DNA from: Fibrobacter sp. | Lineage (GTDB): Bacteria > Fibrobacterota > Fibrobacteria > Fibrobacterales > Fibrobacteraceae | Assembly (NCBI GenBank): GCA_016285835.1 | Contig: JAEERM010000024.1 | Span: 1 to 33,575 of the forward strand | Direction: 5' to 3' | DNA: 33,575 bases | Shown here: positions 13,586 through 28,346 of the stretch, one piece after another | Position numbering within the stretch: the stretch's first letter is position 1 | Layout of the letters: each line of letters opens with the position of its first letter | The notes under the pieces: generated by a model | What the model was told of the DNA's origin: nothing | Databases searched by the model: none | What the model saw: only the letters and a program-made list of their open reading frames with translations | Made by a program: the position numbers and the translations under genes

Positions 13586-15657
13586 TGAAAATATCGTTCA
13601 AGACCATAGCCGTACTTTTAGTAGCACTTGCTACAAGTGCCCTTGCCGATATCATCCCGGCGAAACCTTACTCGATACCGGAGCCACAGGATTCCTCGTG
13701 GGATTCCCCCGATAGGCCGGACCCCGCAGTCCGGGAAACGGACGCCGGACGCTGGGCCATCCCGCTACGTGAAGTCATGCAGCGAACCTTCGACGTGTCG
13801 GGACAAAAATCCGAATGGGTCCTCGGAACATCCATCCTCGGCCACCCTGAACTCGACCCGATGGCCATGGGCATATCATCCCTTTCTACACGCTACCCAA
13901 GCAAGTTGGCCGGCCTTTACACGACGCGGCTGGGCTACGACGCGACCACGCTCACCCTGAACGGCGAGAACGGAATCCTATTCGAAGAACGGCACGGCAT
14001 CCCGATTGACACGCCCATAACAGACTTGAACTGGGAGCGTTCTTCGTTCGACGGCAACGCACTCCGGCTCGACTTCCGCCGACTCGTCACCGATTCCGTA
14101 ATGCTGGACTTTGGCGTCCAGAGCCACTCGAACCACGACTCCAAAGATTACACGTACCAAAACGTCACGCACTCTCCCTATTTTGCCCTGGGTCGCGACT
14201 CCACGCAAATCCCGTTCGGCGGCAGGAACATCGCCATGAACAGCATGCACATTCAACCCATGCTCACCTGGCGTTTCGGGCTCGGTAAGGCCTACCTCAA
14301 GATGAACTACCTGAGCCTGGAAAATGCGGACAACACGAACCACAAGGTGTTGCTCGACACCATGGACCATTCTATACGCACATTCCAGACTAATCCCTAC
14401 ACCATCGACATCAAGGCTGTCACCTACGGAGCAGGCTTTGAAATTTATCCCACCTCCAAGAGTTTCTTCTCGACTGACTTCCAGTACGGCACGCACGAAA
14501 TCGAAGAAGATTCCCTCCCCTCCATTCTTAAGGACACCGCAACCGTCGTCGCCGAAAACGGAATTGTCAGTGTAAACAATATCTACTACGACACGACGAC
14601 CTCGCTCGAATACGAAACCATCCTCGGCAACTTCGGGCTCGGCTACCACACACTTCTCAACCCCACACTCAAGTTCAGCTACGAATTCCTGAACGCCGAC
14701 GATGCTCGCGGTGGCAAAAAGAAGGAATACTTCCAGGACCGCGAAGTGGGCTACATGCAAGTTTCCGACACCATCGCATTCACGATGTTCCGTGCGCAAG
14801 CGGGTATGCAACGCAACAGTTCCCTACTCGACAAACAAGAATACGCCCCGGCCTATTCCACCGATGCAACTGTTTTCTTGCCGTACCACTTCCGGTTAAA
14901 TGGAAACATCCGCCACGACAACAGGTTCCCCGATATCAACCAAATCAAGATTTACGAAACCGGACGCCTCTCGTTCCCGAACGAAGATTTGAAATACGAA
15001 AAACGCGACCGCTACGCCACGCACATCGGCTGGCATTCTCGTGAAGTCTTTTACGGGCTAGGTTTCCGCTACGAAAAGGTCGAAAACCTGATGAGGCCCT
15101 ACTGGGTCAAGAAGGGCAGCGTCGACAGCACTGTTACGTACGATACCCGGGAATATGGGGAAGATACTATCATTGACACCATCGTTACGGCAGACTCCAT
15201 CGAAACACTCTACCGCTGGGCAAATATCGACGAAGCAAACACGCTCGACTGGATTTTGCAACTGGGCTTCCGTCTCGGGAACTGGAAATTCTACCTGGAA
15301 CGCGGGCAAGTCATCGACCGTTCGAGAAAACTCATCGACACACCGGAACTTTACTACAAGGGAAGTATCCACTGGCAGAACCGCTTTGTCAAGGACAGGC
15401 TGGGTGTGAGCGTTCGCGTAGACTGGCAGTGGTTCAACAACAGGATGGACTGCACCATCAACGAACACGGCAACCCCGAACTAGTTGAAATGAGCCACTA
15501 CCTGGCGCTTGATTTCGAAGCCCGTATGCAGATTCTCTCCTTTGAACTTTATACAAGAATCGAGAACTTCAACCACAGCATCTACATGCCCGAAGCGGGA
15601 TACACGCCGGAAGGCTTGCGATTCGCCTATGGAATCGTGTGGACGTTTGGCAACTAA
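13585..15657 (+). CDS. Outer-membrane beta-barrel (TonB-receptor/porin-like)
   Basis: 690 residues from ATG 13585. An upstream open extension in the same frame overlaps the PHP gene and is not coding; this ATG begins a clear signal peptide (MKISFKTIAVLLVALATSALA, cut before DIIP). From ~120 on the protein is a succession of amphipathic strands with paired aromatics and periodic turns (KAYLKMNYLSL, HFRLNGNIRHDNRFPDINQIK, YGLGFRYEKVENL, LGVSVRVDWQWFNNRMD), as in the barrels of TonB-dependent receptors. It ends in a strand (GIVWTFGN). No TonB box or convincing plug is seen, so it may be a plug-less barrel. The start is coupled to the PHP gene by TAATG. The ligand is unknown. Confidence 0.8.
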   Translation: MKISFKTIAVLLVALATSALADIIPAKPYSIPEPQDSSWDSPDRPDPAVRETDAGRWAIPLREVMQRTFDVSGQKSEWVLGTSILGHPELDPMAMGISSLSTRYPSKLAGLYTTRLGYDATTLTLNGENGILFEERHGIPIDTPITDLNWERSSFDGNALRLDFRRLVTDSVMLDFGVQSHSNHDSKDYTYQNVTHSPYFALGRDSTQIPFGGRNIAMNSMHIQPMLTWRFGLGKAYLKMNYLSLENADNTNHKVLLDTMDHSIRTFQTNPYTIDIKAVTYGAGFEIYPTSKSFFSTDFQYGTHEIEEDSLPSILKDTATVVAENGIVSVNNIYYDTTTSLEYETILGNFGLGYHTLLNPTLKFSYEFLNADDARGGKKKEYFQDREVGYMQVSDTIAFTMFRAQAGMQRNSSLLDKQEYAPAYSTDATVFLPYHFRLNGNIRHDNRFPDINQIKIYETGRLSFPNEDLKYEKRDRYATHIGWHSREVFYGLGFRYEKVENLMRPYWVKKGSVDSTVTYDTREYGEDTIIDTIVTADSIETLYRWANIDEANTLDWILQLGFRLGNWKFYLERGQVIDRSRKLIDTPELYYKGSIHWQNRFVKDRLGVSVRVDWQWFNNRMDCTINEHGNPELVEMSHYLALDFEARMQILSFELYTRIENFNHSIYMPEAGYTPEGLRFAYGIVWTFGN

Positions 15658-15663
15658 CGCGGG

Positions 15664-15698
15664 AAGTAGGAAGTAGACAGTAGGAAGTAAACGGTAGG
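15664..15698 (+). repeat. Short 7-bp-period repeat between genes
   Basis: Five heptamers in a row: AAGTAGG, AAGTAGA, CAGTAGG, AAGTAAA and CGGTAGG. The first 26 bases match exactly the tracts starting at 26906 and 27127 in the folC-endA region. The last heptamer gives the AGGAA that serves as ribosome site for ATG 15705. Confidence 0.8.
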
Positions 15699-15704
15699 AA
15701 ACAA

Positions 15705-16244
15705 ATGAAACGGGTTCTTGCATTATTGCTTACGATGACGATAGCCTGCCTTGCGCAGGCCGTTCCAAATACGCATGACGCAGAGTCCCAGTTTTACAGG
15801 GATTCCCTTAAGGCTATACAAAACGCCGACGACACCTACAGGGATTACGACGACTTCTACCAAAAACTCGTCAAGCAAGAGAAAATGCTTCCTACTATAT
15901 GGGAGAATATCGTAGGGTGCGCAGCCGGGGCATTCATCATCGGATTCGGAACATACGGGGCCATCAACTCAGAATCCATCCACGAATCCTATGAGTCCTC
16001 TACAATAAATTCAAGAACCATTTCCAGCACAGCTATCGCATTTCAAATCATCGGCACAACATTAATCGCCTACAATACGTATGCAATCATCCGCGACGCC
16101 CCAAGATCCAGAAGAACCCACAATTACAAAAGAATCTACGAAATCTATAAGCAGCGAAGAAACGAGCAAATTAAAATAGACTTCGTCCCCACCTTTGGAT
16201 TAGACAATTCCTCTGCCGGAATAAATCTGCTGCTCCGTCTATAA
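15705..16244 (+). CDS. Small exported membrane protein, unknown function
   Basis: 179 residues with a signal peptide ending AQA before VPNTHD. A charged, Tyr/Asp-rich region with helix-forming heptads (FYRDSLKAIQNADDTYRDYDDFYQKLVKQEK) precedes two hydrophobic segments at ~66-86 (GCAAGAFIIGFGTYGAI) and ~108-128 (AIAFQIIGTTLIAYNTYAII). A basic stretch (PRSRRTHNYKRIYEIYKQRR) and a short beta-like tail (FVPTFGLDNSSAGINLLLRL) follow. I recognise no family; it resembles small inner-membrane or lipid-associated proteins that Fibrobacterota and Bacteroidota carry near outer-membrane genes. Its ribosome site (AGGAA, 15696-15700) lies in a heptamer repeat. The phosphatase gene follows after 17 bp. Confidence 0.75.
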   Translation: MKRVLALLLTMTIACLAQAVPNTHDAESQFYRDSLKAIQNADDTYRDYDDFYQKLVKQEKMLPTIWENIVGCAAGAFIIGFGTYGAINSESIHESYESSTINSRTISSTAIAFQIIGTTLIAYNTYAIIRDAPRSRRTHNYKRIYEIYKQRRNEQIKIDFVPTFGLDNSSAGINLLLRL

Positions 16245-23578: not shown

Positions 23579-25180
23579 TTAGCGGATGGAAACGCGCTGC
23601 ATGGCAACGAGCTTGTTACCAGCGGTCACGCGAACCAGGAGAACGCCCTTGCCAGCGAACTTGGCGAAGTCAACATCCTTGACCATGCCGCTGAAGGATT
23701 CGCTGTGGAGGAGCTTGCCGTTCATGTCGAACACGCGGAGCGTCTTGACATCGGCAGTGGTAGAAACAACGTTGAGAGTCTTGTCTGCAACGGCGATCTT
23801 ACCAGCAGCCTTCGGTTCCGGCTTAGCTTCCGGCTTCGGTTCTTCCTTGAGCACGAATTCCGTGCAGGAAGTTTCAACCCACCACCAAGAATCATAGGCA
23901 TTGCCGTTGATTGCGTGAGCATAACCAGCATTGTCAACACCACCAAGACGATCCGGATTCAGCACATAGCACTTGCCTTCTTCCATGCCGTTCAGACCGG
24001 CATTGTAGCAATGTTCGCTGTAGCCACCCACATCGTGTTCATAGGTAATGCAGCCCTTTTCGACTTCGTCATAGAGGCTCATATCAACCGGAGCAACGTA
24101 GACCTTTTCGCATTCCGTTTCAACCCACCAGTGAGAATCAAAGGCATTGCCGTTGATGTACTGGTCGTTAGCGTGGTGAGCAATACGATTCGGATTCATG
24201 GCATAGCACTTGCCTTCTTCCATGCCGTTCAGGCCGGACTTGTAGCAGTTTTCGGCATAGTGGCCAGCACCATGGACGTAGTTGATGCACTTGTCCTGGA
24301 TGTACTGAGCGCATTCTTCCTTGTCGGCATTGGCAACGTCAGAGCAGTTGACTTCTTCAGTTTCCTGCTGGCCTTCAGAACCCTGACCTTCAGAACCCTG
24401 ACCTTCGGAACCCTGACCTTCGGAGCCCTGGCCTTCAGAACCCTGGCCTTCGGAACCCTGGCCTTCAGAACCCTGGCCTTCAGAACCCTGGCCTTCAGAA
24501 CCCTGGCCTTCAGACTGGCATTCAATTTCTACACCAGTTTCCGGATCCGTGCAAACGCCCTGGCCTTCGGAGCCCTGGCCTTCAGAACCCTGGCCTTCAG
24601 AACCCTGACCTTCGGAACCCTGACCTTCGGAGCCTTCTTCTTCGCACTGGACAATATTGCCTTCAGCATCGCGGCAGAATTCAATGTCAGCGCAATCCAT
24701 TTCAACCCACCACCAGGATTCAGAAGCCTGGTTGTTGATCCACTTCGGAACGGCGCCACGAGCGGTGTTGAACGTGTAGCACTTGCCTTCCTTCATGTTC
24801 TCGAGGCCTTCGCTGTAGCAGTGCTTGTCATAATCCTGCGTGCCGTTTTTGAACGCGATGCAACCTCTGGAGACAATCTTGTAGGTGCCTTCGACTGGTT
24901 CCGGAACAGGAGCAGCTTCAACGCACGGAGTTTCCACCCACCACCAAGTTTCGGTAGCCTGGTTGTTGACCCACTGAGGAACCGGGCCACGGAGCGTATT
25001 GAAGGTATAGCAAGTGCCAGCCTTCATGTTTTCGAGGCCACTGTTGTAGCAGTTCTGATCATAATCCTTTGTGCCGTTCACGAATGCAACGCAACCCTTT
25101 TCGGCCCACGGAGTTTCTTGAGCAGCTGCAAACGATGCGAGCATCGCCACAGCCATAGATGAATAGATAAATTTCTTCAT
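23579..25180 (-). CDS. Secreted Cys-rich modular protein with GSEGQ repeats
   Basis: 533 residues; the signal peptide is cut after FAAA before QETP. Four tandem modules follow the pattern C-x13-C-x12-C-x(28 to 34)-C, with Y/N-rich centre, GLENMK/GLNGMEEGKCY and a closing WWVE-x-x-C: Cys 30/44/57/86 and 107/121/134/163, then two more after the repeats. Between modules 2 and 3 lie two GSEGQ tracts (5 and 10 copies), each preceded by a short C-D-x-E/T-x10-C element. The last ~70 residues (KTLRVFDMNGKLL ... LLVRVTAGNKLVAMQRVSIR) resemble a type IX secretion sorting domain. I know no named domain for the Cys module. Exposed Trp clusters could suit carbohydrate binding; that is a guess. AGAAGG precedes ATG 25180. 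Confidence 0.88.
   Translation of the reverse strand: MKKFIYSSMAVAMLASFAAAQETPWAEKGCVAFVNGTKDYDQNCYNSGLENMKAGTCYTFNTLRGPVPQWVNNQATETWWWVETPCVEAAPVPEPVEGTYKIVSRGCIAFKNGTQDYDKHCYSEGLENMKEGKCYTFNTARGAVPKWINNQASESWWWVEMDCADIEFCRDAEGNIVQCEEEGSEGQGSEGQGSEGQGSEGQGSEGQGVCTDPETGVEIECQSEGQGSEGQGSEGQGSEGQGSEGQGSEGQGSEGQGSEGQGSEGQGSEGQQETEEVNCSDVANADKEECAQYIQDKCINYVHGAGHYAENCYKSGLNGMEEGKCYAMNPNRIAHHANDQYINGNAFDSHWWVETECEKVYVAPVDMSLYDEVEKGCITYEHDVGGYSEHCYNAGLNGMEEGKCYVLNPDRLGGVDNAGYAHAINGNAYDSWWWVETSCTEFVLKEEPKPEAKPEPKAAGKIAVADKTLNVVSTTADVKTLRVFDMNGKLLHSESFSGMVKDVDFAKFAGKGVLLVRVTAGNKLVAMQRVSIR
24370..24520 (-). repeat. 15-bp tandem repeat encoding GSEGQ (10 copies)
   Basis: Ten in-frame copies of a 15-bp unit that differ mostly at silent third positions (GAA/GAG, TCC/TCT-type changes). 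It encodes a flexible acidic linker inside the Cys-rich protein. Length change by slippage would stay in frame. Confidence 0.9.
24558..24632 (-). repeat. 15-bp tandem repeat encoding GSEGQ (5 copies)
   Basis: A second, shorter tract of the same unit, separated from the ten-copy tract by a 13-residue Cys-x10-Cys element (VCTDPETGVEIEC). Confidence 0.9.
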
Positions 25181-25470: not shown

Positions 25471-26814
25471 TTAGTGATTTTCATTAACGGATGGCGCAAG
25501 TTTTTTAAAAAATTTAAACCCATCAAAGTCATTTTTGAGAATTTGGACAACCGAGCCTATTAAATAAAGGCTTCCGGTAATCAAAAGAGGCCCCTCAGAG
25601 GCATCCAGAATACCCTGTATATAAGTCTCCGACATTTCGCCAGCACTCGCCACAAGCCCACCGAGAGACTCTATCTCCGTCTGCAAGTCCGAAAGCTCAC
25701 GGAAACGGGTGTAAGGCGTCCTCGTGACATGCCATTGACTCACATGGGGCATCATCAGCCGGAGCATTTCATGGAGGTCTTTGTCCTTGAGAGCCCCAAA
25801 CAAGCAATGGAATTTTTGTCCAGGGTAATATTCGCCTAAAGTTTGCACCAAGCGCCGGACCGCATGGGAATTATGCGCCCCGTCCAATATGACCTTCACG
25901 GTTCCATCCGAACCGGTCAAAGTTTGCATCCGGCCAGCCCACGAACGCGTCTCAAGCGATTTTATAGACAAGGCATCGTCGTAACGTTTTCCGGCACGAT
26001 CCGGAGCTTTCAAGAATAGCTCGGCAGCCTTGAGCGAAAGGCTTGAATTTTCAACGTAGTGGTGCCCGAGATTCGGAAGTTTGACATCGGTCCGGATTTC
26101 AGGAACGACAACGGAGGCTCCGAGAGCTGTAGCGTATTCACGCGCCTCCTCAAGCAAATCCGGCCCAAGCCCGCCAAGAACAAAAACCTTGCCCAAAGCA
26201 TCGCCGACAACGCCTGTAGTTTCGCCCGGCACCCCAAGCACCCCCATCTTCTCGCGAAGGATTGCTGATTCCGTAGGCCCTAGAACCTCTGTATGTTCGA
26301 GCCCGATACTCGTCACGATGGCCATATCGCCACCGGCAACCGCGGTGCTATCGAGACGCCCGCCCATGCCCGCTTCGAGCACAGCTACATCGACGCCCTT
26401 CTCTGCATAATAAAGAAACGCAGCAACAGTCAAGACCTCGAAAAACGTAGGTTCCAGAGCGGGTTTGCCGAGCGCAACCTGTGCCGACGACACGGATTCT
26501 GCCGCCTGTTTTACCTGCAACAAAAGCCGGTCAAGATCCGCTTCTGAAATAGGTTCATCGTCAACGCGGATACGTTCACGCAGACTCACCAAATGCGGGC
26601 TCGTGTAAAGCCCCGTTCTAAACCCGTGCGCCTGCAAAATGCCAGCCAAGTAAAAACTCGTCGAGCCCTTGCCGTTCGTGCCCACGACATGGATAGACTT
26701 GAATTTTCGCTCAGGATTCCCGAGAGCATCGCAAATCATGCGCGTAGAATCCAGCCCGGGAACCATCCCGAACATCAAGCGAGTTTCAAGATATTTCATG
26801 CCATCGGATAACAT
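25471..26814 (-). CDS. folC: Folylpolyglutamate synthase / dihydrofolate synthase
   Basis: 447 residues from ATG 26814, where the conserved MLSDGMKYLETRL start of the family begins. ATG 26799 is a possible alternative; the in-frame TTG at 26847 lies in repeat sequence and is unlikely. The Mur-ligase-like ATPase shows P-loop VVGTNGKGST (residues 44-52), TSPHLVSLRERI (71-82), LEAGMGGRLDST, SIGLEHTEVLG and a C-domain ILDGAHN. It adds glutamate to (dihydro)folate and probably also makes dihydrofolate from dihydropteroate. The length is standard for the bifunctional enzyme. No other folate gene is adjacent. No ribosome site is seen; a TATATTTG box ends five bases before the ATG, so the mRNA may be leaderless. 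Confidence 0.92.
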   Translation of the reverse strand: MLSDGMKYLETRLMFGMVPGLDSTRMICDALGNPERKFKSIHVVGTNGKGSTSFYLAGILQAHGFRTGLYTSPHLVSLRERIRVDDEPISEADLDRLLLQVKQAAESVSSAQVALGKPALEPTFFEVLTVAAFLYYAEKGVDVAVLEAGMGGRLDSTAVAGGDMAIVTSIGLEHTEVLGPTESAILREKMGVLGVPGETTGVVGDALGKVFVLGGLGPDLLEEAREYATALGASVVVPEIRTDVKLPNLGHHYVENSSLSLKAAELFLKAPDRAGKRYDDALSIKSLETRSWAGRMQTLTGSDGTVKVILDGAHNSHAVRRLVQTLGEYYPGQKFHCLFGALKDKDLHEMLRLMMPHVSQWHVTRTPYTRFRELSDLQTEIESLGGLVASAGEMSETYIQGILDASEGPLLITGSLYLIGSVVQILKNDFDGFKFFKKLAPSVNENH

Positions 26815-26819
26815 GCGCG

Positions 26820-26827
26820 CAAATATA
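26820..26827 (-). promoter_or_regulatory. TATATTTG box directly before folC ATG
   Basis: A perfect match to TAnnTTTG on the minus strand, separated from ATG 26814 by GCGCG only. If it is the -7 element, transcription would start at or within a few bases of the A of the ATG. Confidence 0.45.
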
Positions 26828-26843
26828 GGAAAAGAGGTTGTGA

Positions 26844-26950
26844 GCAATGAGGTGTGAGGTCGGCACTTTGTGCCTTTGAGGGCGCTGCGCTGTGAGGTGT
26901 GAGGTAAGTAGGAAGTAGACAGTAGGAAGTAGGAAGTGATTAGTGGTTAG
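26844..26950 (+). repeat. 107-bp direct repeat, copy 1
   Basis: Matches 27065-27171 with one mismatch (26881 G versus T). It contains GTGAGGT heptamers, the palindrome GGCAC-TTT-GTGCC (26862-26874), GCGC-T-GCGC (26882-26890), the AAGTAGG heptamer block and the start of the TTAGTGG array. Confidence 0.9.
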
Positions 26951-27065
26951 TGGTTAGTGGTTAGTGGTTAGTGGTTAGTGGTTAGTGGTTAGTGGTTAGT
27001 GGTTAGTGGTTAGTGGTTGGTGGTTAGGGGTTAGGATTTAGGGGTTAGATTCTAGGGGCTAGGGG
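26940..27065 (+). repeat. Heptamer tandem array 1 (18 units)
   Basis: Eighteen units in strict 7-bp phase: eleven perfect TTAGTGG copies, then TTGGTGG, TTAGGGG, TTAGGAT, TTAGGGG, TTAGATT, CTAGGGG and CTAGGGG. There is no coding potential. The G-rich end (27027-27064) has four GGGG runs. Confidence 0.92.
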
Positions 27066-27171
27066 CAATGAGGTGTGAGGTCGGCACTTTGTGCCTTTGA
27101 GGTCGCTGCGCTGTGAGGTGTGAGGTAAGTAGGAAGTAGACAGTAGGAAGTAGGAAGTGATTAGTGGTTAG
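27065..27171 (+). repeat. 107-bp direct repeat, copy 2
   Basis: Second copy of the 26844-26950 unit, offset 221 bp, with the same palindromes and AAGTAGG block. Confidence 0.9.
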
Positions 27172-27209
27172 GGGTTAGTGGTTAGGGGTTAGATTCTAGG
27201 GGCTAGGGA
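27161..27209 (+). repeat. Heptamer tandem array 2 (7 units)
   Basis: TTAGTGG, TTAGGGG, TTAGTGG, TTAGGGG, TTAGATT, CTAGGGG and CTAGGGA: the same end units as array 1 but seven instead of eighteen copies, so copy number differs between the two duplicated blocks. Confidence 0.9.
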
Positions 27210-27217
27210 GAAATATC

Positions 27218-27254
27218 ACGGCTTCGCCGTCTTATATTGACGCACGTAGTGCGT
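27218..27254. repeat. Two short palindromes with 3-base centres
   Basis: ACGGC-TTC-GCCGT (27218-27230) and ACGCAC-GTA-GTGCGT (27240-27254), spaced nine bases apart. They share the layout of GGCAC-TTT-GTGCC in the direct repeats: a 5-6 bp stem and 3-base loop. Confidence 0.8.
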
Positions 27255-27265
27255 GATTCTTTTCA

Positions 27266-27328
27266 CTAGCCTCTAACCTCTAGTCTCTAGCCTCATCGCT
27301 CGCGCCTCGCGCCTCGCACCTCGCGCCC
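27266..27328 (-). repeat. Heptamer array 3, opposite strand (9 units)
   Basis: C-rich on the plus strand in 7-bp phase: CTAGCCT, CTAACCT, CTAGTCT, CTAGCCT, CATCGCT, CGCGCCT, CGCGCCT, CGCACCT and CGCGCCC. On the minus strand it reads as GAGGTGCG/GAGGCTA units related to the G-rich arrays, so it is an inverted relative lying just upstream of the endA promoter. Confidence 0.85.
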
Positions 27329-27338
27329 CAAAAAAACA

Positions 27339-27346
27339 TATATTTA
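27339..27346 (+). promoter_or_regulatory. TATATTTA box upstream of endA
   Basis: One base from TATATTTG. It lies 31 bases before ATG 27378, directly after heptamer array 3. No ribosome site follows. Confidence 0.4.
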
Positions 27347-27377
27347 TTCCCAAACCATCCTCAAAGTGCTTATTGCT

Positions 27378-28154
27378 ATGATTCTCGCCCCGTTTCAGCG
27401 CGTTTTAGCTGCATTTTCTGCCAAGGCATCTATCGCTCTTGCGGTCACATTCTTTGTCAGCCTCCTCGCCCCCAACACAGAGGCCCGCGTTGACCCCACG
27501 GCCGCGCCGCAGCATTACAACTACCGTGACGCAAGCAAGCAACTACGCCGCGTGTACTATGGGGACTTGCAAGAAACGCTCTACTGCGGCTGCAAATACG
27601 ACGACAAGAAGAACGTCGACTTCTCCAGTTGCAATTTCAAGCCGCGCGAAAACCCAAACCGCAAAAGTTTCAAGCGCGCCGAGAAAATCGAATGGGAGCA
27701 CATGGTCACGGCCCACAACATGGGGCACTTCCGCCCCTGCTGGAAGGACGGAGGCCGCAAGAACTGTAGCGCAAACGACACCACGTTCAAGCTGATGGAA
27801 GGCGACATGCACAACCTCTACCCCGCCATCGGCGAGGTGAATGGCGACCGCAGCAACTTCATGTACAGCCAGTGGACGAACGATCCCGTTCCTATGTACG
27901 GTAGCTGCAAGACCATCGTCGACTTCAAAGACAAGAAGGTGCAGCCCCGCGAGGAGGCCCGCGGCATTGTCGCACGCGCGAGTTTCTACATGGAAAAAAC
28001 GTACGGTATTAGTTTATCCAAACAGGACCGCAAGCTGTTCGAGGCATGGGACAAGATGTACCCCGTCACCGAAAAGGAATGTGAACGCGACCGCCGCATT
28101 TTCAAGGTGCAAGGCGACCACAATCCGTTCGTTTACGAGAAATGCCCCAAATAA
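27378..28154 (+). CDS. endA: Secreted endonuclease I (EndA/NucM family)
   Basis: 258 residues from ATG 27378; GTG 27366 would add four. A long signal peptide ends NTEA before RVDP. Family motifs are clear: IEWEHMVTAH (catalytic His108 of the beta-beta-alpha metal site), GDMHNLYPAIGEVNGDRSN (142-160, with metal-binding and active-site His145/Asn146 and Asn160) and a C-terminal GDHNPFVY. Several Cys (CGCKY, SSCNF, RPCW, NCSA, GSCK, KECE, EKC) suggest disulfides, as expected for a periplasmic or secreted nuclease. It cuts DNA, possibly RNA too, non-specifically with Mg2+, likely for nutrient recovery. It stands alone behind the heptamer array and is divergent from folC. HMVTAH replaces the usual HVVPA/HIVPA form. 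Confidence 0.92.
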   Translation: MILAPFQRVLAAFSAKASIALAVTFFVSLLAPNTEARVDPTAAPQHYNYRDASKQLRRVYYGDLQETLYCGCKYDDKKNVDFSSCNFKPRENPNRKSFKRAEKIEWEHMVTAHNMGHFRPCWKDGGRKNCSANDTTFKLMEGDMHNLYPAIGEVNGDRSNFMYSQWTNDPVPMYGSCKTIVDFKDKKVQPREEARGIVARASFYMEKTYGISLSKQDRKLFEAWDKMYPVTEKECERDRRIFKVQGDHNPFVYEKCPK

Positions 28155-28262: not shown

Positions 28263-28270
28263 TATATTTG
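28263..28270 (+). promoter_or_regulatory. TATATTTG box upstream of the beta-helix gene
   Basis: A perfect TAnnTTTG match. Transcription would start near 28276, which is where the inverted repeat at 28275-28346 begins, so the ~100-base leader would open with that hairpin. Confidence 0.45.
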
Positions 28271-28274
28271 TTAA

Positions 28275-28346
28275 GGCCACCTCTAAAAATTGCTTTGATA
28301 AAGAAAATTTGAGCGAGACCGAGTACAGGCATTTTTAGAGGGGGCC
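28275..28346. repeat. 72-bp inverted repeat in the leader of the beta-helix gene
   Basis: Arms 28275-28293 (GGCCACCTCTAAAAATTGC) and 28329-28346 (GCATTTTTAGAGGGGGCC) pair over 17 positions with one mismatch and one bulged T, enclosing a 35-base loop. The T-tract expected of a terminator is missing after the right arm. It may be an RNA hairpin or a small inverted-repeat element. Confidence 0.8.

What the first reader, a model, noticed from the sequence alone, without database searches (positions are those of the whole stretch)
26840..27330. Almost 500 bp of non-coding DNA built on a 7-base rhythm
The whole folC-endA gap is made of heptamers with drifting consensus (GTGAGGT, AAGTAGG, TTAGTGG, TTAGGGG, CTAGGGG), plus an inverted C-rich counterpart next to endA. 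Two 107-bp blocks differ by one base but carry 18 versus 7 terminal heptamers, so copy number changes faster than sequence. I cannot assign it to a known element class.
Basis: seen in the sequence. Interest (0 to 1): 0.7.

Follow-up and report, generated by a model that had tools for sequence, protein, structure and literature searches.

The report
Heptamer repeats around paired REP-like hairpins
The gap between two unrelated genes is filled with 7-letter DNA repeats wrapped around a pair of small hairpins, a genome-wide kind of non-coding repeat that comes and goes between species; it belongs to a known but unexplained class of bacterial heptamer repeats and shows a strict left-right polarity that any explanation must account for.

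Summary
Window 26840-27330 has a strong 7-base period (lag-7 identity 0.64; dinucleotide shuffles 0.28, maximum 0.35). The two 107-bp blocks differ by one base, then diverge in repeat number. It is not a single-locus oddity: the right-hand part is a dispersed element with about 45 other copies in this genome (G-rich heptamers, two inverted REP-like hairpins, C-rich heptamers). Hairpin stems change only as complementary pairs across the genus. The orthologous folC/endA gap in 20 congeners is 0-612 bp, often lacks an array, and uses species-specific heptamers. In 2.0 Mb from four congeneric genomes, tandem repeats outside multiples of three are almost only period 7. Neighbouring arrays of opposite strand bias run G-rich then C-rich 32:0 here and 63:2 in loci from many phyla. 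Abundant intergenic heptamers and their strand preference near genes are already published (PMC6344855, PMC4692102); function is unknown. Best reading: a known kind (heptamer/STRR repeats) in a new variant, wrapped around a REPIN-like core without a RAYT in a near-complete carrier. Telomerase-like and RAYT origins were tested and not supported. The polarity and the exclusivity of 7 remain unexplained.

The parts
26801..26843 (.). promoter-proximal flank of folC, conserved with relative G008; contains AAATATAGG box
   Evidence: alignment; promoter role is inference
26844..26950 (+). 107-bp block 1: GTGAGGT heptamers, hairpin module AGGTCGGCACTTTGTGCCTTTGAGG, AAGTAGG heptamers, start of TTAGTGG run
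26940..27064 (+). long TTAGTGG run passing in register into TTAGGGG and CTAGGGG units
27065..27171 (+). 107-bp block 2, one base different from block 1 (27103)
27157..27213 (+). G-rich left arm of the dispersed element (TTAGTGG/TTAGGGG/CTAGGGG)
27192..27287 (+). core used as query: conserved part of the dispersed element, about 45 further copies in the genome
27214..27231 (+). REP-like hairpin 1: ATCACGGC-TTC-GCCGTC
   Evidence: compensatory stem changes
27239..27258 (-). REP-like hairpin 2, inverted: GACGCAC-GTA-GTGCGTGAT (usual loop GAA)
27264..27330 (-). C-rich right arm: CTAGCCT, CTCATCG, CTCGCGC heptamers
   Evidence: differs from sister G013 mainly by whole 7-nt units
27331..27378 (.). 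promoter-proximal flank of endA (AAAAAAACATATATTTA), conserved in G013 and G008
   Evidence: alignment; promoter role is inference

Best explanation
The gap is a non-coding heptamer-repeat tract of the widespread bacterial STRR/heptamer kind. It gains, loses and converts 7-nt units (shown by comparison) and carries one copy of a lineage-specific dispersed element: two short inverted hairpins framed by G-rich and C-rich heptamer arms. It sits between the two genes' own conserved promoter-proximal flanks and is tolerated there because it disturbs neither. Unit gain and loss by replication slippage or recombination between units is inferred. How the hairpin core spreads (recombination between heptamer arms, gene conversion, or a lost or foreign enzyme) is not shown. 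I think it is mainly a self-expanding, weakly selected intergenic repeat rather than a dedicated regulator of folC or endA.
For: Period 7 far above shuffles. In 2.0 Mb of four congeneric genomes period-7 arrays number 41, 17, 32, 50, while periods 4, 5, 8, 10, 11, 13 give 0-3 each; shuffles give none at period 7 (the G000 sample was chosen from contigs with matches, the other three were not). About 45 further copies of the core region in the genome and a core-bearing clade in the genus. The same divergent folC/endA gap in 20 congeners is 0-612 bp by alignment-based gene ends, with species-specific heptamers or no array. Against sister G013 the right arm differs mainly by extra whole heptamers; against G008 both flanks are conserved while the middle is replaced. 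Hairpin stems vary only as complementary pairs around a mostly TTC loop (ACGGC/GCCGT, ATGGC/GCCAT, GCGGC/GCCGC, GTGGC/GCCAC, ATGCC/GGCAT, ACGCAC/GTGCGT, ATGCAC/GTGCAT; that script searched for perfect stems of 4 or more, so imperfect ones were not listed). The core plus arms folds far better than shuffles (z -5.85). Literature: intergenic heptamers are common and unexplained (PMC6344855, PMC4692102, PMC4679880).
Against: Plain slippage does not explain why only 7, nor the strict polarity (32:0 in the genus; 63:2 in multi-phylum loci, 21:1 among pairs without the query heptamer). Conserved pairing in the hairpins suggests some selection or templated correction on the core. Unit-number change within one species was not measured. 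The multi-phylum sample was collected with one heptamer.
Confidence: 0.68

Rival explanations
1. A REPIN/BIME-type mobile element copied by a RAYT (Y1 transposase), with heptamer arms as its terminal recognition sequence.
For: Two REP-like hairpins in inverted orientation with a short spacer, dispersed and intergenic, stems maintained by compensatory change.
Against: Near-complete core-bearing G008 has no Y1_Tnp match; Y1_Tnp genes elsewhere have open frames of about 160 aa and are present in core-free genomes too. In the window's genome the two places look like two copies of one IS200/IS605-type element with their own shared ends and no heptamers next to them.
Confidence: 0.12
2. A regulatory tract: the arrays act on transcription or translation of neighbouring genes (spacer, Rho or G-quadruplex site, or binding site for an RNA/DNA-binding protein) with array length as a tuning knob.
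For: Location between divergent genes next to conserved promoter-like boxes; strand preference relative to genes; stable RNA fold of the core; MacGregor proposes such a role for TAACTGA repeats (PMC4679880).
Against: Several congeners have only 0-50 bp and no array between the same genes. Polarity holds for all four gene-pair types, so it is not tied to promoters. The dominant TTAGTGG unit has no GGG tract for a three-tetrad quadruplex. From general knowledge cyanobacteria lack Rho yet have such arrays.
Confidence: 0.12
3. Scars of telomere-like 3'-end heptamer addition at chromosome breaks by a reverse transcriptase (as DRT10 and telomerase add short tandem repeats), followed by joining of the two ends; this would give G-rich/C-rich order automatically.
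For: The 32:0 and 63:2 order of G-rich then C-rich arrays is the order of a telomere fusion; units such as TTAGGGG look telomeric; DRT10 makes short-repeat cDNA (PMC12632851).
Against: The window's genome and near-complete or complete array-bearing congeners G004 and G046 have no RVT_1 match, while G045 and G049, which have RVT_1, show no match to this array. Many heptamer classes coexist in one array, unlike a single template.
Confidence: 0.05
4. Assembly artefact of a metagenome bin.
For: The genome is a 212-contig, 86% complete assembly.
Against: The same heptamers and core occur in many independent assemblies, including near-complete ones with few contigs. Only the exact repeat number here could be affected.
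Confidence: 0.03

Closest known systems
Intergenic tandem heptamer repeats of prokaryotes (SPADE survey, PMC6344855; STRR of cyanobacteria)
   Same: 7-nt unit, intergenic, wide taxonomic spread, function unknown
   Different: here many unit classes follow each other in register and surround a hairpin pair
G-rich heptamers GGGAATC / GGGGA(C/T)T of Xanthomonas and Nostoc (PMC4692102)
   Same: strand preference: non-coding strand upstream of a gene, coding strand downstream; length variation between relatives
   Different: main unit TTAGTGG has no GGG tract; sits in a divergent gap, where those repeats are under-represented; paired inverted arms shown explicitly here
TAACTGA heptamer repeats of Beggiatoaceae, Cyanobacteria, Bacteroidetes (PMC4679880)
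   Same: heptamer direct repeats in unrelated phyla; length differences in 7-nt steps; other heptamers mixed in
   Different: in Beggiatoaceae mostly one unit directly upstream of start codons
REPIN / BIME (inverted pairs of REP sequences)
   Same: two inverted hairpins with short spacer, dispersed, intergenic, stem covariation
   Different: heptamer arms; no RAYT found in a near-complete carrier

Membership tests
Heptameric tandem repeats (STRR / heptamer SSR) | head-to-tail units of 7 nt | tested here: met
Heptameric tandem repeats (STRR / heptamer SSR) | intergenic and present at many places in the genome | tested here: met
   (203 of 269 arrays mostly intergenic by a simple ORF caller)
Heptameric tandem repeats (STRR / heptamer SSR) | unit number varies between relatives in steps of 7 | tested here: met
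   right arm, window versus G013; the two blocks within the window
REPIN / BIME | inverted pair of short hairpins, dispersed between genes | tested here: met
REPIN / BIME | RAYT (REP-associated Y1 transposase) in genomes that carry it | tested here: not met
   no Y1_Tnp match in near-complete carrier G008; only IS200/IS605-type copies in the window's genome
Rfam RNA family | match at gathering threshold | tested here: not met
   none in the window
MITE | target-site duplication around an otherwise empty site | not tested
   no clean empty site with unchanged flanking heptamers was examined

The most novel reading that the evidence does not exclude
Intergenic heptamer arrays across unrelated phyla are the product of one directional, period-specific process (for example repeat addition to 3' ends at breaks, or a polymerase that slips by exactly 7 nt), because non-coding tandem repeats here are almost only period 7 and neighbouring arrays are nearly always G-rich first, C-rich second.
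Probability: 0.12. Interest if true: 0.9.

Novelty: new variant of a known kind. Interest (0 to 1): 0.5.

Why it matters
Why bacterial intergenic tandem repeats favour 7 nt has been an open question since at least 2007 (cited in PMC4692102, restated in PMC6344855). This genus gives a clear test bed: many genomes, one orthologous gap with full turnover, almost no other non-triplet period, and an orientation rule that a plain slippage model does not predict.

Tried and rejected
Reverse-transcriptase-written repeats: RVT_1 has no match in the window's genome nor in array-bearing G004 and G046. RAYT. Stop codons in all frames as the reason for 7: stops are only mildly enriched (0.71 versus 0.56 permuted on the G-rich strand, 0.39 versus 0.21 on the other), and published units such as GGGAATC have none. 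Arms co-evolving as a stem: own arms pair better than swapped arms in two genomes, hardly in a third, and not in the window's own, so not claimed. Rho sites with 7-nt YC spacing: literature search returned nothing, and cyanobacteria lack Rho (own knowledge). Orientation bias of the core relative to genes: 12 ++ versus 3 -- but copies are clustered, so not claimed. RNAalifold on the mixed-orientation core alignment was uninformative; stems were read per unit instead. No paper was found that joins heptamer repeats and Fibrobacter.

Full report
Observation. The region 26840-27330 has a 7-base period far above chance: lag-7 identity 0.636 against a mean of 0.279 and maximum of 0.353 in 1000 dinucleotide shuffles, with harmonics at 14, 21 and 28. 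The two 107-bp blocks exist exactly as described, at 26844-26950 and 27065-27171, with one mismatch. Unit classes follow each other in one continuous register: GAGGTGT, GTAGGAA, GTGGTTA, GGGGTTA, GATTCTA, GGGGCTA. Hairpin modules interrupt this. The gap lies between a Mur-ligase-type folC read leftwards and an Endonuclease I gene read rightwards (Pfam), so the genes are divergent.

Genome-wide context. A search of the window's own genome (3.5 Mb, 212 contigs) gives 76 matches. About 45 other places cover the right-hand part. Read side by side they have one plan: G-rich heptamers (CTAGAGG, CTAGGGG), a hairpin ATCACGGC-TTC-GCCGTC, a short spacer, an inverted second hairpin GACGCAC-GAA-GTGCGTGAT, then C-rich heptamers. 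Both hairpins, read from outside inwards, have the same form: ATC, a 5-6 bp stem, loop TTC, return stem. Core matches are strong in a set of congeners (G000, G013, G008, G063, G018, G083, G092) and weaker elsewhere. Stems differ between species as complementary pairs. This is a REPIN-like architecture. The defining enzyme was looked for and not found: near-complete carrier G008 has no Y1_Tnp match, and the copies in the window's genome look like an ordinary IS200/IS605-type element. So it resembles a REPIN but is not filed as one.

Turnover at one locus. In 20 congeners where both genes could be placed, the divergent folC/endA gap is 0-612 bp (gene ends are from alignments, so lengths are approximate). 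Many contain heptamers of different sequence (for example TAGTTAT/TAGTCGT/TAGTTAC in L174, TTGATAA/TTGATGA in L156); several contain none. Against sister G013 the right arm differs mainly by extra whole heptamers; against G008 both gene-proximal flanks, with AT-rich boxes, are conserved while the middle is replaced. At the same position the hairpin module AGGTCG-stem differs completely in stem sequence (GGCAC/GTGCC versus GGGGCT/AGCCCC) but remains a perfect hairpin. The array is therefore dispensable at this locus over evolutionary time.

Period and polarity. In 2.0 Mb from four genomes, period-7 arrays number 41, 17, 32 and 50; periods 4, 5, 8, 10, 11 and 13 number 0-3 each; multiples of three occur as expected of coding DNA; shuffles give nothing at 7. 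The G000 part was sampled from contigs with matches; the other three were not. Among neighbouring arrays (within 300 bp) of opposite strand bias, the order is G-rich then C-rich in 32 of 32 cases. In loci from many phyla fetched with GGTTAGTGGTTAGTGG it is 63 of 65, and 21 of 22 among pairs that do not contain that heptamer. Copies within a genome are not all independent. The rule holds for tandem, convergent and divergent gene pairs, and array-free intergenic DNA does not show it. Rehm and colleagues reported the matching strand preference for G-rich heptamers in three genomes (PMC4692102), so the rule is an extension, not a first sighting.

Interpretation. Heptamers as the commonest intergenic tandem repeat in prokaryotes are published, with the statement that there is no clear clue to function (PMC6344855). 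A link to the DNA segment held by the polymerase has been suggested (cited in PMC4692102). I place the finding there: a heptamer tract that gains and loses units, carrying a REP-like pair that has multiplied in this lineage. Gain and loss of units and dispersal are shown by comparison; slippage or recombination as the cause, and near-neutrality, are inferred. Reverse-transcriptase writing was considered because the polarity is that of a telomere fusion and DRT10 makes such repeats (PMC12632851), but RVT_1 has no match in array-bearing genomes. The reason for exactly 7 and for the polarity is open, and that is where the remaining interest lies.

Noticed in passing
window 15655-15700: A second small heptamer array (GGAAGTAGGAAGTAGACAGTAGGAAGTA) directly after the ORF ending at 15657 and before the ORF at 15705.
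   Followed up: partly
window 24368-24628: 17.6 copies of a 15-bp tandem repeat (CTGGCCTTCAGAACC) inside overlapping long ORFs on both strands.
   Followed up: no
L006, L008, L014, L016 (arrays): A second dispersed module, TTGTCATTGCGA...GAAGCAATCTCC, lies inside heptamer arrays.
   Followed up: no
L007, L017, L021, L025 (arrays): A further palindromic insert, CCTTTGACCACTTAGTGCTTTAGCACTTATGTGGGCATGGCCACCTTTAGGTGG, interrupts the arms at the same kind of place.
   Followed up: no
window 26858-26885 and 27079-27106; many loci of the genus: Hairpins with constant flanks (GAGGTC...TTTGAG) but freely varying, perfectly paired stems (GGCAC, GGCGC, GGGGCT, GCGACC, GCCTTGC).
   Followed up: partly
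L149, L150: Two copies of an IS200/IS605-type Y1 transposase gene with shared palindromic ends, the second with a frame break.
   Followed up: partly
window 28270-28345: Inverted repeat CCTCTAAAAATTGC ... GCATTTTTAGAGG between endA and the next gene, possibly another dispersed element or terminator.
   Followed up: no
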